Shown here in pieces: positions 10,609-47,570 of a stretch of 64,000 nucleotides of DNA. Location of the stretch: positions 3,892,400 to 3,956,399 of the forward strand of contig NZ_CP076718.1 of NCBI RefSeq assembly GCF_011682235.2, given 5' to 3'. This stretch comes from Rhodocaloribacter litoris. Its GTDB lineage: Bacteria > Bacteroidota > Rhodothermia > Rhodothermales > ISCAR-4553. A program made the position numbers and the translations under genes. The notes under the pieces are model-generated. The model saw only the letters and a list, made by a program, of their open reading frames with translations. It was not told where the DNA came from and ran no database searches. The stretch's first letter is position 1; each line of letters starts with the position of its first letter.

Positions 10609-11796
10609 TCAACGTCCGTTCGTCGGGGCGGCGTGGCGTTCGGGTTTCCAGGAGAAGATGTAGTCCACGTCCTCGTGGGCGACGGCCGTTTTCGTCAGCC
10701 GGAGGGGGCGGAACGTGTCCACCATGACGGCCAGTTCCTCGGTGCGCTCTTTCCCGATGGACGCCTCGACGGTGCCGGGGTGCGGCCCGTGCGCGATGCC
10801 GCCGGGGTGCAGGGTGAACGAGCCTCGCTCGATGCCGCGCCGGCTCATGAAGTCTCCTTCGGCGTAGTAGAGCACTTCGTCCGAGTCGATGTTCGAGTGA
10901 TTGTAGGGGGCCGGGATGGCCTCGGGGTGGTAGTCGAACAGGCGGGGGACGAAGGAGCAGATGACGAAGTTGCGCCCGGCGAAGGTCTGGTGGACCGGCG
11001 GCGGCTGGTGAATGCGGCCGGTGATGGGCTCGAAGTCGTGGATCGAAAGGGCGTACGGATACATGTAGCCGTCCCAGCCGACGTAGTCGAACGGGTGATA
11101 CCGGTAGAAGAGCCGGTGCAGGTAGCCGTGCTTGGCGATGCGGACTTCGAACGCCCCTTCCTCGTCGATGGTGATGAGCTCCGAGGGCGGGCGGATGTCC
11201 CGCTCGCAGAAGGGGCTGTGCTCGAGGAGCTGGCCGAACTCGTTCCGGTAGCGTTTCGGGAAGCGTACCTCCGAGAAGCTCTCGATGATGAGCACCCGGT
11301 TGCGGATGCCGGGTTTGAACCGCCAGCGGTGCGTGATCGTGCGCGGGACGTGCACGTAGTCGCCCTGCGAGAATTCGAGCCGGCCGAAGGGGCTCTCGAG
11401 CACCCCCTCGCCGTCGTGGATGAAGACGACCTCGTCCGCGACGGCGTTGCGGTAGAAGTAGTCCATCTCCGCCGTGGGTTCGGCCAGGGCCAGGCGCACG
11501 TCCTCGTTGCCCATGATGTAGCGCCGGGCGGTGAGCCAGTCCCCGCTGCTCTCGACCTCGAACCCCTTGATATGGCGGTGGCGGAGGGTGTCCAGGTCGG
11601 TATAATCCGGGGCGAAGGGGATCGGGTCCGCGATGCGCTCGACGACGGTGGGCGGGTGGAGGTGGTAGGCGATGGAGGCGATGCCGCTGAAGCCCTCCGC
11701 GCCGATCACCTCTTCGCTGTAGAGGCTCCCGTCGGGTTTGCGGAACTGGGTATGCCGCTTGTGCGGGATGGCGCCGAGTCGGAAGTAGTAGGGCAT
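10609..11796 (-). CDS. hmgA: Homogentisate 1,2-dioxygenase
   Basis: The 395-residue cupin-type Fe(II) dioxygenase opens the homogentisate ring to maleylacetoacetate. Iron-site regions typical of the family are visible: HRLFYRYHPFDYVGWDG, APYNHSNIDSDEVLYY with nearby glutamate, and GGIAHGPHPGT. The N-terminus MPYYFRLGAIPHKRHTQFRK is standard for the bacterial short form. It lies 19 bp downstream of hppD on the same strand, so the two consecutive steps of tyrosine breakdown are coexpressed. No fumarylacetoacetase or isomerase gene is in the window. Confidence 0.96.
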   Translation of the reverse strand: MPYYFRLGAIPHKRHTQFRKPDGSLYSEEVIGAEGFSGIASIAYHLHPPTVVERIADPIPFAPDYTDLDTLRHRHIKGFEVESSGDWLTARRYIMGNEDVRLALAEPTAEMDYFYRNAVADEVVFIHDGEGVLESPFGRLEFSQGDYVHVPRTITHRWRFKPGIRNRVLIIESFSEVRFPKRYRNEFGQLLEHSPFCERDIRPPSELITIDEEGAFEVRIAKHGYLHRLFYRYHPFDYVGWDGYMYPYALSIHDFEPITGRIHQPPPVHQTFAGRNFVICSFVPRLFDYHPEAIPAPYNHSNIDSDEVLYYAEGDFMSRRGIERGSFTLHPGGIAHGPHPGTVEASIGKERTEELAVMVDTFRPLRLTKTAVAHEDVDYIFSWKPERHAAPTNGR

Positions 11797-11815
11797 GGCG
11801 GTGGCGGGTTTGGGT

Positions 11816-12958
11816 TCAGAGGTTGCCGCGCCGGGCCTGTTCGCGCTCGATGGCTTCGAAGAGCGCCTTGAAGTTGCCCTTGCCGAAGCTGCGCGCGCCC
11901 TTGCGCTGGATGATCTCGTAAAAGAGGGTCGGGCGGTCCTCGACGGGCCGGGTGAAGATCTGAAGCAGGTAGCCCTCGTCGTCCCGGTCGACGAGGATGC
12001 CCAGCTCCTGCAGGCGGTCCACCGGCTCGTCGATCTTGCCGACGCGGTCCTGCAACTCGTCGTAATACGTGGTCGGGACGTAGAGGAACTCGACGCCCCG
12101 GTTGCGCAGGGCCGTGACCGTCGCGAGGATGTCGTCCGTGGCCATGGCCACGTGCTGCACGCCCGGGCCGCCGTAATACTCGAGATACTCCTCGATCTGG
12201 CTTTTTCTCCGTCCCGGTGCCGGTTCGTTGATCGGGAATTTGATCCGTTCGTTGCCGTTGGCCATCACTTTCGACATCAGGGCCGAGTACTCGGTCGAGA
12301 TGTCCTTGTCGTCGAACGAGATCAGGTTCTTGAAGCCCATCACGCGGGCGTAGAAGTCGACGTACCGGTTCATCTCGCCGAGGCGGACGTTGCCGACGCA
12401 GTGGTCGACGTACTTGAGCCCGACCGGTTCGGGGCGCCAGTGCGGGTTGTTCCAGGGCTCGAAGCCGGGCATGAAGAGGCCGTGGTAGTCCCGCCGTTCG
12501 ACGAAGGAGTGGATCGTGTCGCCGTAGGTGGCGATGGCCGCGACGACGATGCGGCCGTGCGCGTCTTCGAGCACCTCGGGCTCCCGCACGGGCCGGGCAC
12601 CGCGCCGGACTGTTTCCTCGAAGGCGTACCGGGCGTCGTCGACCCACAGCGCAATGTCCCGGATGCCGTCGCCGTGGCGGCGGACGTGCTCGGCGATGGA
12701 TGAATCCGCCGTCAGCGGGGCCGTGAGCACGAAGCGGATCTTGCCCTGCTGGAGCAGGTAGCTGGCCGCCTCCCGGTGGCCGGTCTCCAGCCCCCGGTAG
12801 CCGATGATCTGAAAACCGAAGGCACTCTGGTAGTAGTAGGCGGCCTGCTTCGCGTTGCCCACATAGAACTCGATGTAGTCGGTCCCGTTGATCGGGAGAA
12901 AGTCGACTTCGGAGGGGCGATGAGCGGGGGAGAGGACGGGCGTTTCGGCCATGACCAT
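11816..12958 (-). CDS. hppD: 4-Hydroxyphenylpyruvate dioxygenase
   Basis: The 380-residue protein converts 4-hydroxyphenylpyruvate to homogentisate. The iron triad is present: H186 in [10 protein letters not shown]269 in [13 protein letters not shown] and E348 in [12 protein letters not shown]. The C-terminal gating helix region ([14 protein letters not shown]) is intact. Two in-frame ATGs, 12958 and 12952, are equally plausible, and neither has a clear Shine-Dalgarno. It is the first gene of the hppD-hmgA operon. A promoter-like TTGACA-18-TATCTT arrangement lies about 160 bp upstream, which would leave an unusually long leader. Confidence 0.96.
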
Positions 12959-38068: not shown

Positions 38069-38512
38069 ATGAAGCCGGTGCCTGCCACGATACTGCTGGT
38101 CGAAGACAATGTGGCCCATGCCGCACTCGTGTTCCGGACGCTGGAAGAATATGATTTTGATGTCAAAATCGTGCATGTATCCGATGGCGAATCGGCGCTG
38201 GATTACCTTTTTCGGCGTGGTATGTTTGCCGGGCGAACGGAGCATGACCTGCCCTGTGTCATCCTGCTCGATCTGCGCCTGCCGCGCGTAGACGGGCTGG
38301 AGGTTTTGCGGCAGATCAAGTCGAACGAACGGTTGAAGAAGATTCCGGTTGTCATCATGACGACTTCCTCCGCCGAGCGCGACGTGTCCGAAGCCTACGA
38401 GCGACACGCCAACAGCTACCTGGTCAAGCCCGTCGACTTTGCACGCTTCTCCCGGATGATGGAGGGGATGAGTGAATACTGGCTGAAGTGGAACTATTTT
38501 GCCGGGGTGTGA
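38069..38512 (+). CDS. Rcp1-like single-domain response regulator
   Basis: The 147-residue receiver protein has E12/D13, phosphoacceptor D68 in VILLDLRLPRVDGLEVL, a switch region VVIMTTSSAERDV and lysine in SYLVKPVDF. The insertion YLFRRGMFAG and the C-terminal WLKWN identify the Rcp1/CheY-like family that couples to phytochrome-type kinases. It has its own promoter-like box and a downstream hairpin, so it may be expressed alone. It closely resembles the next regulator gene, indicating tandem duplication. Confidence 0.9.
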   Translation: MKPVPATILLVEDNVAHAALVFRTLEEYDFDVKIVHVSDGESALDYLFRRGMFAGRTEHDLPCVILLDLRLPRVDGLEVLRQIKSNERLKKIPVVIMTTSSAERDVSEAYERHANSYLVKPVDFARFSRMMEGMSEYWLKWNYFAGV

Positions 38513-38591
38513 ATACTGGCTTCTCCGTCTGGACCGGGTTCCGGCGGAAGCACCCGCCGCCTGCAGGTTGAAACGGCGGTCATAGATCGAA

Positions 38592-38623
38592 GGCCGGTGC
38601 AGGTTGGCCGGCCGGTTTTTTTT
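38592..38623 (+). terminator. Probable rho-independent terminator after the first Rcp1-like gene
   Basis: Arms GGCCGG (38592-38597) and CCGGCC (38608-38613) enclose a 10-base loop, then GG and eight T residues (38616-38623). It lies about 80 bp after the response regulator stop. The stem is short, and an alternative pairing of CCGG adjoining the T-tract exists. Confidence 0.5.
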
Positions 38624-38737
38624 GAGGTATCGTTGTTTTGCTTGCCGGGCATTGCGTTTTTTGTCTATTCCGGCCTGCGTCATGAAGTCCGTGCGGTTCG
38701 GAAGGGCAAACCCGGATGCGCGTGGGGATGAGGGGAT

Positions 38738-39172
38738 ATGGAACAGGGACCATTCAGGGTCTTGCTCGTGGAAGACGATCCGGCCCATGCGGCATTGATC
38801 AAACGAGGACTGGGTGAGGGGGATGTACCGCATCAGATCATCCACCTGACGAACGGGGAAGCGGCGCTGGACTTTCTCTTTCGTCGTGGAGAGCATGATG
38901 CCGCACCACGCCCTCACGTCGTATTGCTGGATCTCCACCTGCCCCGGGTGCACGGGCTGGAGGTGTTGCGCCGGATCCGGGATTCCAGCGAGCTGCGCCT
39001 GCTGCCGGTGGTGGTCCTGACCACCTCGGAGGCCGAGCAGGACGTGGCCGGTGCGTACGAATATCGGGCCAACAGCTACGTCGTCAAACCCCTGGATTTC
39101 CAGCGATTCAGGCGTTTCATGCAGGCGTTCCGGTACTACTGGCTGGAGTGGAACCACTACCCGTGGATCTGA
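38738..39172 (+). CDS. Rcp1-like single-domain response regulator (second copy)
   Basis: The 144-residue protein has phosphoacceptor D65 in VVLLDLHLPRVHGLEVL, ED at 12-13, VVVLTTSEAEQDV and SYVVKPLDF, with terminal YYWLEWNHYPW. The layout is near-identical to the regulator 0.7 kb upstream, with the same YxFRRG insertion. It lies 26 bp before a hybrid histidine kinase on the same strand, making that kinase its probable partner. Confidence 0.9.
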   Translation: MEQGPFRVLLVEDDPAHAALIKRGLGEGDVPHQIIHLTNGEAALDFLFRRGEHDAAPRPHVVLLDLHLPRVHGLEVLRRIRDSSELRLLPVVVLTTSEAEQDVAGAYEYRANSYVVKPLDFQRFRRFMQAFRYYWLEWNHYPWI

Positions 39173-39198
39173 CCCCTCCTGCCGGGCATTAGCAAAGG

Positions 39199-40755
39199 AT
39201 GGACCTCGACCGCATCGACATACTGCTGGTAGAGGACGAGGCCGCGCACGCCGCCCTGGTGCAGCGGGCGTTCAAGGCCCGGGGCGAGGCGGTGCACCTG
39301 CGCCATGCCGACACGCTGGCCGAGGCACGCCGGCAACTGGAACGGAGTCTGCCCGATCTGGCCATCGTCGACCTGCGCCTGCCGGACGGGGACGGCATCG
39401 AGTTGCTGGTCGTGGAAGACGGCATGCCGCTTTTCCCGGTCGTCATCATGACCAGCCATGGCGACGAGCAGGTGGCCGTCGAGGCCATGAAGGCGGGAGC
39501 GCTGGACTACGTGGTCAAGTCGGAGGCCATGCTCGTGCAGATGCCCCGCATCGTCGAGCGGGTGCTGCGGGAATGGGGGCACATCGTCGAGCGGCGGCGG
39601 GCCGAGAAGGCCCTTCGGGAGAGCGAGATCCGTTTCCGAAGTCTCTTTGCCCATTCGCCCGTCGCCATCTGGGAGGCGGATTATGCCGGTGTGAAGACCT
39701 TCCTGGATCTGTTGCCGCTCACCGAGCAGGAGGACGTCCGGGACTATTTCGACCAGCATCCCGAGGTCGTGCGGGCCTGTGCCCATCGCGTGTGCATCCT
39801 GGCGGTCAACGAAGCGGCGGTACAGCTCTTCGAGGCCGACGGCGCCGGGCCGCTGCAGGAGACGGCCTCCGTGCTCGTCGCCGGCGAGATGGGCGAGGCC
39901 TTCAAGCAGGAACTGCTCGCCATCCACCGCGGGGAACGGCTGCTCGAGCTGGAGGCCGTGGCCCGCACGCTGAAGGGCAACCGTCGCGACGTGACGCTCC
40001 GCTGGACGGTTCCGCCGGGGCACGAGCAGGACTATTCCCGGGTGCTGATCTCGATGGTGGACGTCACCGAGCGCAAGCGGCTCGAGAAGGAGATCCTGGA
40101 GATCAGCGGCCGGGAGCAGCGGCGCATCGGGCGGGATCTGCACGACGGCCTCGGGCAACTGCTCGGTGGCGTGCGCTTCAAGATCGCCCGGCTCCGGCAG
40201 CGCCTGCAACGGCGGGGCATCGAGGCCGAGGCCGAGATGCTCGATGAGATCGACCAGTTCATCGCCGAGGCGATGACGCAGGCCCGGGCGCTCGCGCAGG
40301 GGCTGAGCCCGGTCAGCGTCGAGGAGGACGGGTTGACGCAGGCCCTGCGGGGGCTGGTCTACACCGTCGAGCGGCTGGGGGGGATCCCGTGCACCCTGCA
40401 CGTGGACGAACCGGTCTCCATCGGCGACCCGGAGGTGGCCACCCAGCTCTATCGCATCGCGCAGGAAGCCCTGACCAACGCCATGCGCCACAGCCGGGCT
40501 ACCCGGCTCCAGGTGATCCTCGCGCGCGAGGGGTCCAGCGTCACGCTCACCGTGCGCGACAACGGGGTGGGCATCCCGAAAAAAGCAGCCCGGCGGGAAG
40601 GCATGGGCCTGCACATCATGCGGTACCGGGCCCGTATGATCCAGGCCGACCTGGAGGTGCGGAACCTGCCGGAGGGCGGAACGCAGGTCTCCTGCCGCTT
40701 CTCGACGGCAACGACCCTGCGGTCTTCACGGGCGCTCTCTGCGAACGAAAGCTAG
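39199..40755 (+). CDS. Hybrid sensor: receiver-PAS-HisKA_3 histidine kinase
   Basis: The 518-residue cytosolic protein has an N-terminal receiver domain (5-125, phosphoacceptor D58), a PAS domain (about 145-295, with a FLDLLPLTEQEDVRDYF insertion), a HisKA_3 phosphotransfer site with H315 in GRDLHDGLGQLLGG, and a HATPase domain (about 420-510, EALTNAMRHSRA and DNGVGIPKK). HisKA_3 kinases typically phosphorylate LuxR-type regulators, so the NarL-type regulator at 37.2 kb is a candidate target. The receiver at the front suggests input from another kinase. It follows the second Rcp1-like gene and precedes rlmB by 6 bp. Confidence 0.9.
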   Translation: MDLDRIDILLVEDEAAHAALVQRAFKARGEAVHLRHADTLAEARRQLERSLPDLAIVDLRLPDGDGIELLVVEDGMPLFPVVIMTSHGDEQVAVEAMKAGALDYVVKSEAMLVQMPRIVERVLREWGHIVERRRAEKALRESEIRFRSLFAHSPVAIWEADYAGVKTFLDLLPLTEQEDVRDYFDQHPEVVRACAHRVCILAVNEAAVQLFEADGAGPLQETASVLVAGEMGEAFKQELLAIHRGERLLELEAVARTLKGNRRDVTLRWTVPPGHEQDYSRVLISMVDVTERKRLEKEILEISGREQRRIGRDLHDGLGQLLGGVRFKIARLRQRLQRRGIEAEAEMLDEIDQFIAEAMTQARALAQGLSPVSVEEDGLTQALRGLVYTVERLGGIPCTLHVDEPVSIGDPEVATQLYRIAQEALTNAMRHSRATRLQVILAREGSSVTLTVRDNGVGIPKKAARREGMGLHIMRYRARMIQADLEVRNLPEGGTQVSCRFSTATTLRSSRALSANES

Positions 40756-40761
40756 GGGTTC

Positions 40762-41544
40762 ATGGGAAAGCAACCAGCGGTGCCCGAGAACCTGATCGTC
40801 GGGCGGAACCCGGTGCGGGAGGCCCTTGCCCGGGACGAGGGACGGATCGAGAAAGTCCTGATCCAGCAGGGGGCGGGCGGAGCCGCCATTCACGCGATCC
40901 GGCGGGCCGCGACGCAGGCCGGGGTGCCCGTCCAGTTCGTGCCGGCGGCGCGGATGGCCCGGCTCGCCCCGGGACTCAACCATCAGGGGGTGGCGGCCGT
41001 GGCGGCCCCCGTCGCCTACCTGGAGGTGGAGGCGCTGCTCAACCACATCGCGCCGGACCCCGACGCGGTCCGGGCCCGCCGTCCGCTCCTGCTGCTGCTG
41101 GATCAGATCGAAGATCCCCACAACTTCGGCGCCATCTTGCGCAGTGCCGTGGCGGCCGGCGTCGACGGGGTGATCGTTCCCAGGCACCGGATGGCGCCCC
41201 TGAACGCGGCGACCATCAAGGCAAGCGCCGGCACCGCCCTGCGCGTCCCGCTGGCCCGCGCGGGCAACCTCGCCGACGTGATCCAGCAACTGAAGGAACG
41301 CGGCTACTGGGTCGCCGGCGCGGCCGGTACGGGAGCCACCTCGCTGTGGGAGATGGACTGGGACCGGCCGCTGGCCCTCGTGATCGGCAACGAAGAAAAA
41401 GGCCTGCGTCCCCGCGTCGCCGGGGCGTGCGACTACCTCGTTTCCATCCCGATGCGGGGCCCTGCCGAGTCGCTCAACGCCTCGGTGGCGGCCGGCATCC
41501 TGCTCTTCGTCGCCATGCGGGCACGGACCGGCAACCCGGGTTAG
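40762..41544 (+). CDS. rlmB: 23S rRNA (guanosine-2'-O-)-methyltransferase RlmB family
   Basis: The 260-residue SpoU-type enzyme has a substrate-binding N-terminal domain (IVGRNPVREALARDEGRIEK) and a knotted SAM-binding domain with DQIEDPHNFGAILRSA, LVIGNEEKGLRP and SIPMRGPAESLNASVAAGI. It methylates a conserved guanosine of 23S rRNA (or a related tRNA site). It lies 6 bp after the hybrid kinase gene, probably cotranscribed, and overlaps the opposite small gene by 4 bp. Confidence 0.92.
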   Translation: MGKQPAVPENLIVGRNPVREALARDEGRIEKVLIQQGAGGAAIHAIRRAATQAGVPVQFVPAARMARLAPGLNHQGVAAVAAPVAYLEVEALLNHIAPDPDAVRARRPLLLLLDQIEDPHNFGAILRSAVAAGVDGVIVPRHRMAPLNAATIKASAGTALRVPLARAGNLADVIQQLKERGYWVAGAAGTGATSLWEMDWDRPLALVIGNEEKGLRPRVAGACDYLVSIPMRGPAESLNASVAAGILLFVAMRARTGNPG

Positions 41545-42006: not shown

Positions 42007-44469
42007 TCAGGGGGAAGGAGCGTGCCGTTCCAGGGCGCGGCGGAGCAGGAAGCGGAGGTCGGGGTCGGGTTCTTCGGCGAGGCGACGTTCGAGCCGTGCC
42101 CGGTCGGCGGGGCCGTCGGCGAGGAGGGTTTGCAGGGAGGCCCGGCGCACCCGGGGGTCGGGGTCGTCGAGGAGGGCCCAGAGCCGCTCGCGGGCGCGGG
42201 GCTGCGTCCCGGCGAGGGCGTGAAGCAGAGGCAGGGTGGCGATGCGGACGGGAGCGGGGTGCGTCGCTTCCGTGTAGGGCAGGGCGAGGTCGAGGGCGGT
42301 CCGGGCCGGCAGGTCGAGCCGGGCCAGGCCGGTGAGGGCGGCCTGCCGGATGACGTCGCGGTGGGAAGGGGTGATCAGTGCGGAGCGGATCACGTCGAGC
42401 GCCTGCGGGGCGCCGATCCGGGCCAGGGCCCGTACGGCGGCCGCCTGCACGCGGTAACTCCGGTCGGTGTTGGCGATCTCCACCGCACGGCGGGCGACGA
42501 CCTCCGAGCCGGCGAAGGCGCCGAGCCCGTCGAGGGCAGCGGCACGGACGGCGGGTGCGGGGTCCGACAGGGCGTCGAGCAGCGCCCGCTCCACGCTGGG
42601 GGCGGGCGGCACCTTCCCCATCGTCTCGACGATGGCAGCCCGCACGGTGGCGTCCGGCTCGCCCGCCAGGGCCGACCGGAGACCGAAGAGCAGGTCCGGG
42701 TGCTCCCGGAAGGTAGCCAGCGCCCGGGCTGCCCGGAGGCGGTGGACCGGCGCGGCGGCATCCCGGAGCTGGGCGACCCAGGCCGTCACCGGCTGGTCCA
42801 TCCGCACCTCGGCCAGCAGCGTGCTCCCGGCATCGAAGACGACGAAGCGCGGCGGCATGCGCAGCGGGAACGTGTACCGGGCCTCTCGCCGGTGCAGGCG
42901 GAGTGGGAAGCGTTCGGTGCCGGCCAGCGTTTCGACCTCCAGCACGACCTCGGCCTCGAAGACCTCCGGCACCAGAGGACCTTCCTGCACCTGCCGGACG
43001 GTCACGTCGAGCCGGCCGGTGGCGGCGTCATGCGCGTACGCGACCTCCAGGACCGGATGGCCGGCGGCGTAGACCCACTGGTCGAAGAACGGCCCCCAGT
43101 CTCGACGGGTCTCGGCTTCGAGCGCCCGCACGAAGTCGCCCGTCTCGACGGAGGAGCGGTCGTGCGCGTAGAGGAAGCGGTTGAGGACCCGGCGGAAGGC
43201 CTCGTCGCCGATGGCCTGGCGGATCATGTAGAGGACCCAGGCGCCTTTGGCGCGGCTGTGGGCGTCGCGCATCTGGGCCGGGTCTTCCCACCGATCCCAC
43301 ACGAGGGGGCGGACGTAGCGGGCCGTCTCTGCCCGGTAGGTGTGTGCCAGGCGGTCCATGTGCAGCGCGAGCGCCTCTTCGCCCCAGACGTGTGCGGCAA
43401 ACCGGGCGCCCAGGTAGGCGGGGAAGGCGTCGTCGAGCCAGCGGTCGGTCCAGAAGTCGGCCGCCACGAGGGTGCCGAACCACTGCCGGGCCAGCAGGCG
43501 GGCCAGCGTCGTGTCCGGGTTCTCGTCGAGGCGGGCACGTTCGTCGAGCAGGTCGCCGGCATTCAGAAGCACCAGGCCGGGGGCGGCTGCGTCGCCGGTA
43601 TGGAGGCCGGGGACGGCTACGAGGGCAAGGTCCGGCGTCGGGAAGGGGTAGCGCAGGTGGTCGGTGAGGAAGCGGATCACCTCGGGCACGTGGGCCAGGG
43701 TGCGGGCTGCCGCGTCGAGCCGGTTCGGGGGAGCGGCGTAGGTCGCGGTCACGCGGGCGCCGGGCAGGGTGTCGCCGCCGGCGAGCGGGCCGGACACCGG
43801 GAGGAGGTGGTGAAAGGCGACGGGGTAGGGGGCGGTGAAATGGTAGGTCAGGGTGCCGTCATCACGGGCCTGTCCGGTCTTCGGGAGGCCGAAGAGGTAG
43901 GCCCGTTCTCCGGCTTTTACGGTCCACCGCACGTCGGCGGTGAAGCGGTCGCCGGCGGTGTGCAGGAGGGGGGTCCAGTGGGCCTGCACGTCCGGTTCGT
44001 CGCTCGCCCAGCGGAAGGCGCCGGTGGCATACAGCCCGCGCCGGGGGGCGGCGGTGTAGGCGATCTCCAGCGCGAAGGGCGTGCCGGCGGCGAGGACGGT
44101 GTCCGGCCGGATGAGGAGGGTGTCCGGCGGGGCAAGGCGAAACGGTGCCGGGCGGCGCAGGGTGTCGGAGAGGGTCAGGTGCACCGAATCCACGTGCAGC
44201 GCGGGGGCGGCCAGGAGCAGGGCGTCGAGCGAGTCGACGAGGGCGACGAGGCGGAGGGTGACCCGGCCCGCAAGGCGCTCCGGTGCCGGGCCGGGCCGGA
44301 GATCCAGGTGCAGGTGCTCTAGTTCGACCGGCGGAAGCGGTGCCTCCCGGACCGGACCCGTGAACAACGGGTGATCGAACGGTGGCGTTTCCTGCGCCGC
44401 AGCCGGCAGGGCGAGCAGCGCGCATCCGGCCACCGCCAGCGATCGGAGGAGCGTGGAGCAGCGTGGCAT
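42007..44469 (-). CDS. M1 aminopeptidase-like protein with lost zinc site and C-terminal HEAT-like repeats
   Basis: The 820-residue secreted protein (signal peptide 1-25) keeps the M1 fold: a beta-rich N-terminal domain (about 45-250) and the catalytic-domain landmarks RQWFGTLVAADFWTDRWLDD. The zinc motif HExxH is replaced by R324-L-L-A-R328 and the distal glutamate by D347. GAMEN becomes GDAAA (292-296), and the usual YxKGA tyrosine is arginine. The C-terminal part (about 600-820) is an alpha-helical HEAT/armadillo-like repeat array (DPAPAVRAAALDGLG units). It is therefore predicted to be a non-catalytic scaffold. It is last in a minus-strand gene run. Confidence 0.8.
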   Translation of the reverse strand: MPRCSTLLRSLAVAGCALLALPAAAQETPPFDHPLFTGPVREAPLPPVELEHLHLDLRPGPAPERLAGRVTLRLVALVDSLDALLLAAPALHVDSVHLTLSDTLRRPAPFRLAPPDTLLIRPDTVLAAGTPFALEIAYTAAPRRGLYATGAFRWASDEPDVQAHWTPLLHTAGDRFTADVRWTVKAGERAYLFGLPKTGQARDDGTLTYHFTAPYPVAFHHLLPVSGPLAGGDTLPGARVTATYAAPPNRLDAAARTLAHVPEVIRFLTDHLRYPFPTPDLALVAVPGLHTGDAAAPGLVLLNAGDLLDERARLDENPDTTLARLLARQWFGTLVAADFWTDRWLDDAFPAYLGARFAAHVWGEEALALHMDRLAHTYRAETARYVRPLVWDRWEDPAQMRDAHSRAKGAWVLYMIRQAIGDEAFRRVLNRFLYAHDRSSVETGDFVRALEAETRRDWGPFFDQWVYAAGHPVLEVAYAHDAATGRLDVTVRQVQEGPLVPEVFEAEVVLEVETLAGTERFPLRLHRREARYTFPLRMPPRFVVFDAGSTLLAEVRMDQPVTAWVAQLRDAAAPVHRLRAARALATFREHPDLLFGLRSALAGEPDATVRAAIVETMGKVPPAPSVERALLDALSDPAPAVRAAALDGLGAFAGSEVVARRAVEIANTDRSYRVQAAAVRALARIGAPQALDVIRSALITPSHRDVIRQAALTGLARLDLPARTALDLALPYTEATHPAPVRIATLPLLHALAGTQPRARERLWALLDDPDPRVRRASLQTLLADGPADRARLERRLAEEPDPDLRFLLRRALERHAPSP

Positions 44470-44490: not shown

Positions 44491-45573
44491 CTAGGCAGGA
44501 GGACGCAGGCTTTCGGCCGGACCGGGTGCGGTCACGGGCGCTTCGGGCTCGCGCACGACCTCCCTGAGCGTGCGCAGGCCCGCCCCCTGGAAGGCGAGGA
44601 ACGCAAAGCCCAGCATCACATAGAGCACCATCTGGCCGGCGTGGGCCACGATGGCGTAGGAGGCGGCCACACTGCGCGCCACGCCGTAGAGGTGCACCAG
44701 CGTTTCGATGGTAATATAGTGATACGAGCCCGTACCACCCGGCGAGGGAAGGGCGACGCCGATGGCGCCCAGGATCATGACGTTCCAGGCGTCGACCAGC
44801 GTCAGCCCGAACGCATCGTTCATGCCGAAGAGGACGAACGGGAGGTAGGCCATCAGCGCGTAGCAGAACCACATCGCCAGCGTTGAGAACAGGATCACGC
44901 CGGGGCGGCGGCTCCGCAGAACGGTCAGCAGCCCGGCTTTGAAGGACCGGAGCGCCGTTCGGGCGCGCCCGGCCCAGCCGCCATGCCCGCCCGCCACGAG
45001 GCGCCGGTAGACCAGCAGCACCAGCCCGCCTACGACGAGCACGCCCAGGCCGAGCACCAGCACGGATCCCGGCCCGAGCCGGGTGCGAAGCGGTGCGAAG
45101 AAAAGCGTGTCGAGGGTCGTGAGGTGGTCCAGCAGCAGAAAGAACACGCTCACCAGCGCCAGCCCGAGCACGAGCACGTCGAGGAGGCGCTCGACGGCGA
45201 CCGTGCCGAGCACCCCGCTGAAAGATTGCCGGGTCCGCCGGGCCAGGTGTGCCGACCGGGCCAGTTCCCCCGCCCGGGGCGCGGCATAATTGACCATGTA
45301 GCCGATCATGAGCGAGCCGAACGCTTCACGCAGGGAGACGCGGCGCGGCGTCTCGCCGGGCAGGGCTTCGAGCAATACCTGCCACCGCCAGGCCCGGAAC
45401 AGGTGGCTCAGGATCGTCACCAGCGCCAGCGGAAGCAGCCAGACGTATTCGGCCGTTCGAAGCGCCGTGCCCACCTCCGAGAAGTCGACGCCGCGAAGGG
45501 CCAGGTAGAGCAACCCCCCCGCCAGCACGAAACTGCCGGCCTGCGCCAGAATCTTGCGGGTACGCTGGGTCAT
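44491..45573 (-). CDS. UPF0104 / lysylphosphatidylglycerol synthase-like membrane protein
   Basis: The 360-residue polytopic protein has about eight membrane helices. Family features are SHLFRAWRWQVLLEAL, the loop SLMIGYMVNYAAPRAGELARSAHLARR, and a later PSPGGTGSYHYITIETL. This is the flippase-like half (TM region) shared by MprF and the YbhN/AglD proteins, without a synthase domain. Members move or decorate lipid-linked molecules. It sits 21 bp upstream of the M1-like pseudoenzyme and 93 bp downstream of lolA in a shared run. Confidence 0.85.
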   Translation of the reverse strand: MTQRTRKILAQAGSFVLAGGLLYLALRGVDFSEVGTALRTAEYVWLLPLALVTILSHLFRAWRWQVLLEALPGETPRRVSLREAFGSLMIGYMVNYAAPRAGELARSAHLARRTRQSFSGVLGTVAVERLLDVLVLGLALVSVFFLLLDHLTTLDTLFFAPLRTRLGPGSVLVLGLGVLVVGGLVLLVYRRLVAGGHGGWAGRARTALRSFKAGLLTVLRSRRPGVILFSTLAMWFCYALMAYLPFVLFGMNDAFGLTLVDAWNVMILGAIGVALPSPGGTGSYHYITIETLVHLYGVARSVAASYAIVAHAGQMVLYVMLGFAFLAFQGAGLRTLREVVREPEAPVTAPGPAESLRPPA

Positions 45574-45666: not shown

Positions 45667-46323
45667 TCAATCCGACCGCAGGTCGACCACCTCGGCGCCC
45701 GGCGGCGGGGTGAACGCAAACGTGTCCGGCGCCAGCGGAGGATCGAGTTCGATCTCGCGGAGGTCGAAGACCAGCTTCGTCTCGTTCACATCCACGACCT
45801 CGATCCGGGTGATCAGGTCGTCGCTTTCCCGCATCACCACCATGATTTCGCGGAAATAGGAGGCGGGGTCGCGCGGGCGGAGCCGCACCGTGCGGTGCTC
45901 TTTTCCGTTCAGGAGCGCCCGGCCGGTGGAGATGATCTCGTACCGGTCCTCGAAGTTGAAGAGGAAATCGTTCAACGAGAAGGTGGTTTCATCCTTCACG
46001 TAGTCGTTGATGAGGACCTGGTTTTCGGCGGCGTTGTAGATCCAGGTCACCCGGCCATCGGTGACGATGGTCTGCCCGGGGACTTCCACCCGGAACTGGT
46101 CGCCGCGCAGGATGAGGGTGCCGGAGAACGTGTCACCCTCGCGCCCGTCGGGCGTGATCAGGGTCTGCCGGAAGGCCGCCCGGAGGGCATCCACCCGTTC
46201 GTACCGGGTCTTGAGGCGCTCCACCACCTCCTGCCCGCTCTGGGCACGGGCGGCCGGCTGTCCGAAAAAGAGGACGGCGGTGAGGAGCGTCATCGGGCAA
46301 AAAGGCAGGAGAGCACGTCGCAT
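45667..46323 (-). CDS. lolA: Outer membrane lipoprotein carrier LolA
   Basis: The 218-residue periplasmic protein has a signal peptide (1-27, GQPAARAQ). The LolA fold shows in VVERLKTRYERVDALRAAFRQTL, FSGTLILRGDQFRVEVPGQTIV, DGRVTWIYNAAENQVLINDY and a C-terminal beta pair. It ferries lipoproteins to the outer membrane, consistent with the several lipoproteins in the window. The start MRRALLPFCP gives a sensible signal peptide. It is cotranscribed with the membrane protein downstream. Confidence 0.9.
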   Translation of the reverse strand: MRRALLPFCPMTLLTAVLFFGQPAARAQSGQEVVERLKTRYERVDALRAAFRQTLITPDGREGDTFSGTLILRGDQFRVEVPGQTIVTDGRVTWIYNAAENQVLINDYVKDETTFSLNDFLFNFEDRYEIISTGRALLNGKEHRTVRLRPRDPASYFREIMVVMRESDDLITRIEVVDVNETKLVFDLREIELDPPLAPDTFAFTPPPGAEVVDLRSD

Positions 46324-46403: not shown

Positions 46404-47570
46404 TCAGGCCGGCTGGTGGACGGCTTCGTGCAGGGCCTCGCGGAGCGCGTCGACGTCGGCGGCGTCGTTGTAGACGTGCGGGGCGATGCGGAGGGCATTG
46501 CCGCGTACGGAGACGGAGACGTGGCGGGCGTCCAGCGCGGCCCGGAGACGGTCCATGGAAAGCCCGGCGGGCGTGCGAAAGCCGAAGAGGTGGGCGGCAC
46601 GGTACGCCTCGTCCTCCACGCGAAAGCCCATCGTCCGGGCCGTCTCGATCAGGTCCCGGCAGAGCGCCCGGCAATAGTCCCGGATGTTTTCCACCCCCCA
46701 TGCGAGCAGGTGGTCGAGGGCGGCCCGCAGCATCGGGACGAGTGCGAAGTTGCTCCGTTCGCCCACGTCGTAGCGGACGGCGCCGGGCTGATAGGCATCG
46801 GTGTAGCGCACCAGGCCCGCAAAGTCTTCGCTGCCCCGGCGGGTGATCCAGTTTTCTTCGAGCGGGACGCCGTCGTCGAAGCGGGGGCCGTAGTAGGCGA
46901 GGCCGAGGCCGTACGGGCCCAGCAGCCATTTGTAGCCGGCGCAGACGAGCGCATCCGGCCGGATCGCTCGCACGTCGAACGGCAGGGCGCCGACCGACTG
47001 CGTGCCGTCCACGACGAACACGGCGCCCACCGCTCGGGCGTGTGCCCCGATGCGTTCGAGGTCGAACACCGTCCCGTCCGTCCAGTGGACGTGAGGCAGG
47101 GCCACCAGCCCGGTATCGGGGTCGATGGCTTCGAGGAGGCGTTCGTTCCAGGCGCGTCCCCGTCCGGTTGCGGTTTCCGGCGGTTTCACCGTGCGGAGCG
47201 TGACGCCGCACTCGTGCTGCAGGCGCCGCCAGGCGTACACGTTGCTGGGAAACTGTTCGTGGAGGACGACGATGTTTTGCCCCGGCCGGAGCCGCACGTT
47301 TTTCGCCACCGTGGCCAGCCCGTACGAGACCGCCGGGATGATCGCCACCCGCATGGGGTCATCCAGGTGGATGAGCCGGGCAAAGCGCCGGCGGACCGCA
47401 TCGCTTTCGTCGAAGAAGTCGGCGGGGGTGATCGAAGCGGGCACCCGCTTCCGGCGGATCCCTTCGATGCCCGCCGCTTCGACCTGTTTCGAAAGCGGGG
47501 CCATGTAGGCGCAGTTCAGGTAATGCAGGGATTCGGGAAGGAAAAACAGGGCTTTCTGGCAGGGAAGCAT
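46404..47570 (-). CDS. Class V aminotransferase / cysteine desulfurase-like PLP enzyme
   Basis: The 388-residue PLP enzyme has the Schiff-base lysine in VCAGYKWLLGPYGLG and the cofactor motif VVDGTQSVGALPFDV. Further family residues are HVHWTDGTVFDLERIG and an N-terminal NCAYMAPLSK. This is the short aminotransferase-V group (IscS/SufS, isopenicillin-N epimerase-like); the mobile-cysteine loop of desulfurases is not evident. Substrate unknown. It follows thpR by 9 bp and belongs to the same run. Confidence 0.88.
   Translation of the reverse strand: MLPCQKALFFLPESLHYLNCAYMAPLSKQVEAAGIEGIRRKRVPASITPADFFDESDAVRRRFARLIHLDDPMRVAIIPAVSYGLATVAKNVRLRPGQNIVVLHEQFPSNVYAWRRLQHECGVTLRTVKPPETATGRGRAWNERLLEAIDPDTGLVALPHVHWTDGTVFDLERIGAHARAVGAVFVVDGTQSVGALPFDVRAIRPDALVCAGYKWLLGPYGLGLAYYGPRFDDGVPLEENWITRRGSEDFAGLVRYTDAYQPGAVRYDVGERSNFALVPMLRAALDHLLAWGVENIRDYCRALCRDLIETARTMGFRVEDEAYRAAHLFGFRTPAGLSMDRLRAALDARHVSVSVRGNALRIAPHVYNDAADVDALREALHEAVHQPA

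What the first reader, a model, noticed from the sequence alone, without database searches (positions are those of the whole stretch)
42007..44469. M1 aminopeptidase-fold protein with every catalytic residue replaced
The fold landmarks remain (RQWFG, WTDRWLDD), yet HExxH is RLLAR, the third zinc ligand is Asp, GAMEN is GDAAA and the KGA tyrosine is Arg. The C-terminus carries HEAT-like repeats. Loss of all sites together while the frame stays intact over 820 codons implies selection for a non-enzymatic role, such as scaffolding at the envelope.
Basis: partly seen in the sequence, partly recalled or inferred. Interest (0 to 1): 0.6.

Follow-up and report, generated by a model that had tools for sequence, protein, structure and literature searches.

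The report
Exported aminopeptidase fold that lost catalysis
A whole order of bacteria keeps, at one fixed chromosomal address, an exported protein shaped like a zinc aminopeptidase whose cutting site has been scrambled while its other parts stay under selection, so it most likely works by binding partners rather than cutting peptides.

Summary
Window 42007-44469 (-) encodes an intact 820-aa exported M1-aminopeptidase-fold protein with HExxH->RLLAR (324-328), Glu ligand->Asp347, GAMEN->GDAAA (292-296) and catalytic Tyr->Arg406. A confident AlphaFold2 model (pLDDT 88.9) has the complete four-domain M1 fold; the 'HEAT repeats' are simply M1 domain 4. The gene sits in a conserved block (aminotransferase V - LolA - UPF0104 flippase - M1 -> <- SpoU) in six families of Rhodothermales. 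Of 33 syntenic copies read (this one included) none keeps the zinc site; replacements differ between genomes. dN/dS (0.18-0.38) shows purifying selection, and constraint has moved: domains 3-4 are more conserved than the HExxH half in 10/10 dead pairs versus 0/34 intact M1-HEAT pairs. One family (f14) has lost the peptidase domain and keeps only signal peptide + domains 3-4. Outside the order nearly all close homologues have intact sites. So this is a genuine, selected bacterial pseudo-M1 family, architecturally like eukaryotic TAF2. Its partner is unknown; an exported binding/scaffold role linked to the adjacent flippase/LolA genes is inference. Intact ancestors at this locus are seen only as two partial, different genes in one MAG. 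New variant of a known kind.

The parts
42007..44469 (-). pseudo-M1 gene, 820 aa
44395..44469 (-). Sec-type signal peptide (about residues 1-25, ...ALPAAAQ)
   Evidence: sequence; Q26 conserved in 96% of dead orthologues; low pLDDT 14-29
43720..44352 (-). M1 domain 1 (beta), residues 40-250
   Evidence: VIA-align from residue 34-42
43054..43719 (-). M1 domain 2 (former catalytic domain), residues 251-472
   Evidence: Pfam Peptidase_M1 257-464
43582..43596 (-). GDAAA in place of GAMEN
43486..43500 (-). RLLAR in place of HExxH
43429..43431 (-). Asp347 in place of the third zinc ligand Glu
43252..43254 (-). Arg406 in place of the catalytic Tyr
42799..43053 (-). domain 3 (beta sandwich), residues 473-557
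   Evidence: conserved part
42022..42798 (-). domain 4 (HEAT-like), residues 558-816; with domain 3 the part kept in f14
   Evidence: Pfam HEAT_2
44491..45573 (-). UPF0104/LPG_synthase_TM flippase-like membrane protein, 21 bp upstream, same strand
   Evidence: Pfam PF03706, TIGR00374; synteny
45667..46293 (-). LolA
   Evidence: Pfam PF03548, TIGR00547; synteny
46404..47570 (-). class V aminotransferase
   Evidence: PF00266; synteny
40762..41544 (+). SpoU rRNA methylase, convergent, other edge of the conserved block
   Evidence: PF00588; synteny

Best explanation
The gene encodes an exported M1-fold protein that has lost the residues needed to bind zinc and cleave peptides in the M1 way and is kept for a non-catalytic job. 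Shown by sequence analysis: all catalytic residues lost, fold predicted intact, conservation at one locus in six families of the order, purifying selection, constraint moved from the HExxH half to the C-terminal part of domain 2 and to domains 3-4, and one family that lacks domains 1-2. Inferred: domains 3-4, together with a fixed patch on domain 2 (D342, Y378, E381, L389, W391, W394, D402, H404), form a binding surface for a periplasmic partner, most plausibly a client or component of the adjacent LolA / UPF0104 lipid-flippase system. It would work like TAF2, whose dead aminopeptidase domain serves as an architectural platform. Step probabilities: dead as an M1 peptidase 0.97; selected non-catalytic role 0.9; D3-D4 binding platform 0.65; functional link with the flippase/LolA neighbours 0.4.
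For: Catalytic positions in 33-34 syntenic copies: GAMEN Glu 0/33, His1 1/33, Glu 1/33, His2 1/33, third ligand 10/33, Tyr 0/34, with no common replacement. Conserved block AT5-LolA-LPGS-M1-SpoU in f1, f2, f5, f6, f8, f9. Survey of 80 M1-HEAT loci across GTDB: sites intact nearly everywhere outside Rhodothermales. Conservation inverted: intact set HExxH half 53% vs HEATa 27%; dead close set 38% vs 47%; dead f5 21% vs 40%; disjoint pairs 10/10 vs 0/34, p = 4e-10. dN/dS 0.38 with G001 (neighbours 0.27-0.32) and 0.18-0.25 in the least saturated f5 pairs. f14 keeps signal peptide + D3-D4 only at the same site. Model pLDDT 88.9, pTM 0.88; Foldseek rank 2 is TAF2 (7edx_B, TMq 0.79, the highest TMq listed); PepN Z 41.
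Against: No partner, localisation or assay. Synteny with LPGS/LolA is also kept in families that lack the M1 gene (f3, f4, f10, f12, f13, f15), so those neighbours do not need it. Domain 2 keeps conserved residues although f14 lost the domain, so one shared function for all versions is not certain. dN/dS is somewhat higher than in the neighbours, so partial relaxation exists. The p-value assumes that the disjoint pairs are independent, which related sequences are not fully.
Confidence: 0.65

Rival explanations
1. Decaying pseudogene: catalysis was lost and the gene is on its way out, as shown by its absence in several families.
For: Absent from the site in f3, f4, f10, f12, f13, f15 and part of f2; N-terminal half evolves fast in f5; dN/dS 0.47 in domain 1.
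Against: Open frames in more than 30 orthologues, dN/dS well below 1, D3-D4 conserved, the loss is old and spread over six families.
Confidence: 0.07
2. The domain still binds substrate N-termini or peptides in the old cleft without cleaving them (a peptide-binding chaperone or receptor), so the cleft rather than D3-D4 is the working part.
For: A patch in D2 beside the former site is fixed in dead orthologues (D342, Y378, E381, RPLVWxxW, DxH); Tma108 binds nascent chains, apparently through its pocket (PMC11266112).
Against: The GAMEN Glu, which recognises the substrate N-terminus in M1 enzymes, is lost in 33/33; the HExxH half is among the least conserved parts; f14 lacks the domain.
Confidence: 0.2
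3. A new catalytic activity uses other residues in the cleft.
For: Invariant Asp402, His404 and Glu381 in domain 2 near the former site in sequence.
Against: Asp402 and His404 also occur in many intact M1-HEAT proteins, no new conserved metal-ligand set appears, and f14 has lost the domain.
Confidence: 0.05
4. It regulates or dimerises with an active M1-HEAT paralogue (dead plus live pair).
For: G009, G021, G030 and G036 have a dead syntenic copy and an intact paralogue.
Against: The window's own genome has no second M1-HEAT gene; its other two M1 proteins are of a shorter type.
Confidence: 0.05

Closest known systems
TAF2 (TFIID subunit), pseudo-M1 protein of eukaryotes
   Same: Complete M1 four-domain fold used for architecture; highest TM-score among listed PDB hits (TMq 0.79, 7edx_B); in yeast TFIID the D3 and D4 domains of Taf2 make contacts (PMC6220335).
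   Different: Eukaryotic nuclear transcription complex; this protein is bacterial, exported, with no known partner. Sequence identity about 16%; independent origin from M1 enzymes is the likely relation (inference).
M1 aminopeptidase N / ERAP / tricorn factor F3 (Pfam PF01433)
   Same: Fold and domain order, QWFG and KGA landmarks.
   Different: All zinc and catalytic residues replaced.
Intact M1 proteins with HEAT_2-type D4 in Verrucomicrobiota, Planctomycetota, Chloroflexota and others
   Same: Same architecture and nearest sequence relatives outside the order.
   Different: Those keep HExxH...E, GxMEN and Tyr, and are not next to LolA/UPF0104/SpoU.
Tma108 (yeast M1 homologue)
   Same: M1 homologue with a proposed non-enzymatic binding role (PMC11266112).
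   Different: Tma108 retains nearly all active-site residues; it is associated with ribosomes.

Membership tests
M1 zinc aminopeptidase (enzyme) | M1 domain sequence profile | tested here: met
   PF01433 90.8 bits, cut-off 27.7
M1 zinc aminopeptidase (enzyme) | HExxH...E zinc site | tested here: not met
   RLLAR...D; lost in all syntenic orthologues read outside G007
M1 zinc aminopeptidase (enzyme) | GAMEN exopeptidase motif | tested here: not met
   GDAAA; Glu in 0/33
M1 zinc aminopeptidase (enzyme) | catalytic Tyr before KGA | tested here: not met
   Arg406; Tyr in 0/34
M1 zinc aminopeptidase (enzyme) | zinc content and aminopeptidase activity | not testable with these tools
   needs purified protein
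M1 fold (four domains) | D1-D4 arrangement | tested here: met
   predicted model only
TAF2 | dead M1 fold | tested here: met
   TMq 0.79 to 7edx_B
TAF2 | role in TFIID | not testable with these tools
   no TFIID in bacteria; likeness is of architecture only
Tma108-type pseudo-M1 | active-site residues mostly retained, pocket binds clients | tested here: not met
   none retained here; description from PMC11266112

The most novel reading that the evidence does not exclude
A periplasmic pseudo-peptidase family, spread over an order, that acts as a non-catalytic subunit of a LolA/UPF0104 lipid or lipoprotein export module, with living stages of enzyme-to-scaffold conversion at one locus: (partly seen) intact, dead full-length, and domains 3-4 only. 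The binding function was in place before catalysis was lost, since the G007 fragment with intact Glu and Tyr already carries the full signature of the dead proteins.
Probability: 0.22. Interest if true: 0.68.

Novelty: new variant of a known kind. Interest (0 to 1): 0.48.

Why it matters
The best described M1 pseudoenzyme, TAF2, is eukaryotic. Here a bacterial lineage has made the same kind of protein, at a fixed address, with enough orthologues to see which parts selection kept once cutting stopped, and with a domain-3-4-only version showing what may be dispensable. That makes the step from enzyme to scaffold testable by simple domain deletions. Annotation by domain models alone will call these proteins M1 peptidases, which is wrong for the whole family.

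Tried and rejected
First genome-contig scan with the single protein found nothing; the alignment query worked. A first dN/dS for the window pair was wrong by a one-codon shift (last row) and was redone. I first took the two G007 pieces (L040, L039) for one intact gene split by contigs; their 13-residue overlap differs (GDKITCGSWEDIW vs GDFVTTETWADIW), so they are two genes, probably tandem, each seen in part; the claim was weakened accordingly. The tree places the G007 C-piece inside the dead group (94/98), which suggested repeated losses at the locus, but the AU test does not reject a single loss (p 0.215), and the neighbour-gene tree does not resolve it. A dead+live partner rule fails in the window's own genome. 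G020 fragments (L089, L090) are intact where read and have none of the block's neighbours. The lipoprotein reading of the signal peptide (VAGC) was dropped: the Cys is not conserved in orthologues. Literature searches found no report of this bacterial family; the library is incomplete.

Full report
OBSERVATION. The ORF at 42007-44469 (-) is 820 codons, ATG to stop, with no interruption. Pfam gives Peptidase_M1 at 257-464 with 90.8 bits and HEAT_2 repeats beyond it. Alignment to tricorn factor F3 and ERAP1 fixes the positions: GAMEN -> GDAAA (292-296), HExxH -> RLLAR (324-328), third ligand Glu -> Asp347, catalytic Tyr -> Arg406. NCBIfam aminopeptidase N models match far below their cut-offs (74 bits against 591).

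STRUCTURE. An AlphaFold2 model from 38 aligned sequences has mean pLDDT 88.9 and pTM 0.88. It has the full M1 layout: beta domain 1, the former catalytic domain 2 with both active-site helices, beta-sandwich domain 3, and an alpha-solenoid domain 4. VIA-align gives Z 41 to E. coli aminopeptidase N over residues 34-814. Foldseek ranks TAF2 of TFIID second, with the highest query TM-score listed (0.79). The 'HEAT repeats' are therefore M1 domain 4, not a separate addition. N-terminal residues 1-25 look like a Sec signal peptide ending in an AxA-Q site, and Q26 is kept in 96% of dead orthologues.

CONSERVED ADDRESS. In the window the gene lies 21 bp after a UPF0104/LPG_synthase_TM membrane protein, which follows LolA and a class V aminotransferase; a SpoU methylase converges from the other side. 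The same block holds an M1 gene in families f1, f2 (G036), f5, f6, f8 and f9 of the order. G008 is Roseithermus sacchariphilus (contig of the same length as CP030158.1), so the order is Rhodothermales. M1-HEAT genes outside the order have none of these block neighbours. In f3, f4, f10, f12, f13, f15 and most of f2, where the flanks could be read, the flippase and SpoU genes remain but no M1 gene lies between them.

LOSS IS SHARED AND UNCONSTRAINED. Across the syntenic copies outside G007 the GAMEN Glu is present in 0/33, the first His in 1/33, the catalytic Glu in 1/33, the second His in 1/33, the third ligand in 10/33 and the Tyr in 0/34; no protein has the set. The replacements differ from genome to genome, so no alternative site has been fixed there. 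Against this, a survey of 80 M1-HEAT loci from GTDB species found intact HExxH...E nearly everywhere outside the order; the exceptions were two MAG sequences with one changed residue in HExxH (L144, L182).

SELECTION HAS MOVED, NOT STOPPED. dN/dS against the nearest orthologue (G001, 54% identity) is 0.38 over residues 30-720: 0.47 in domain 1, 0.43 in the HExxH half of domain 2, 0.35 in its second half, 0.22 in domain 3, 0.32 in the first part of domain 4; the neighbours LPGS and LolA give 0.32 and 0.27. The least saturated f5 pairs give 0.18-0.25. Regional identity is inverted with respect to intact relatives: in the intact set the HExxH half is most conserved (53%) and HEATa weak (27%); in dead orthologues it is 38% against 47% (close group) and 21% against 40% (f5). 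With disjoint pairs, domains 3-4 beat the HExxH half in 10/10 dead and 0/34 intact pairs, Fisher p = 4e-10. Shared ancestry weakens that p-value but not the direction.

A SIGNATURE. Fourteen positions (D342, Y378, E381, L389, W391, W394, D402, H404, G497, V500, P501, P540, R541, R569) are nearly fixed in the dead family (chosen for that reason). Not chosen for it: the G007 C-terminal piece, which still has the zinc-ligand Glu and the Tyr, carries all fourteen, while three intact paralogues of the order match at about half of them or fewer. This suggests, from one fragment, that the family-specific constraint preceded the loss of catalysis.

DOMAIN LOSS. In f14 (G034, G041, G014) the same site holds a shorter protein with an apparent signal peptide that lacks domains 1-2 and keeps domains 3-4 at 37-38% identity. 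This is the strongest pointer to domains 3-4 as the working part.

WHAT IS NOT SHOWN. G007 (a MAG) has two pieces at the locus, one with GGMEN and HELAH, one with Glu and Tyr. Their short overlap differs, so they are two genes, each incomplete. An intact ancestral state at this locus is thus likely but not read in full. The number of losses at the locus is open: the best tree puts the G007 piece beside a dead orthologue (94/98), but one loss is not rejected (AU p = 0.215). Elsewhere in the order two further M1-HEAT paralogues are also dead, each sister to an intact one (L052 98/94, L191 100/100), so catalytic loss in this architecture happened at least three times in the order.

MECHANISM. Best reading: an exported, non-cleaving platform whose domains 3-4, with a conserved patch on domain 2, bind a periplasmic partner. 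UPF0104/YbhN proteins are related to the MprF transport domain, a lipid scramblase in vitro (PMC11980842; also PMC12713373), and LolA carries lipoproteins (established knowledge of the family), so a lipid or lipoprotein export context is plausible. But these neighbours persist without the M1 gene in other families, so the link is only a hypothesis. The closest precedent is TAF2, which uses a dead M1 fold as architecture. The protein is not an M1 peptidase by any of the three sequence criteria for catalysis; it is a member of the M1 fold.

NOVELTY. Dead M1 proteins are a known kind (TAF2; Tma108 in part). A bacterial, exported one spread over an order at a fixed locus was not found in the literature searched, and the graded series of forms is unusual. 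I rate it a new variant of a known kind.

Noticed in passing
L052 698-3382 (G007:C9) and L191 (G026:C15): Two non-syntenic M1-HEAT paralogues with destroyed active sites, each sister to an intact protein: further independent losses in the same order.
   Followed up: partly
L069, L070, L071 (f14): D3-D4-only proteins with an apparent signal peptide at the same locus; they could be studied as a minimal module.
   Followed up: partly
L040 1-1118 and L039 11210-12709 (G007): Probably a tandem pair of M1 genes between LPGS and SpoU, middle missing from the MAG.
   Followed up: partly
L036 about 11344-12416 (Roseithermus): The UPF0104 flippase gene is split into two overlapping frames in this complete genome: frameshift or sequencing error.
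   Followed up: no
L144, L182: One changed residue in the HExxH motif of otherwise ordinary M1-HEAT proteins (HELAL, HMLAH) in MAGs: sequencing error or starting pseudoenzymes.
   Followed up: no
window 38069-40755: Two similar single-domain response-regulator genes and a histidine kinase with an N-terminal receiver domain in a row beside the block (read from the sequences).
   Followed up: no
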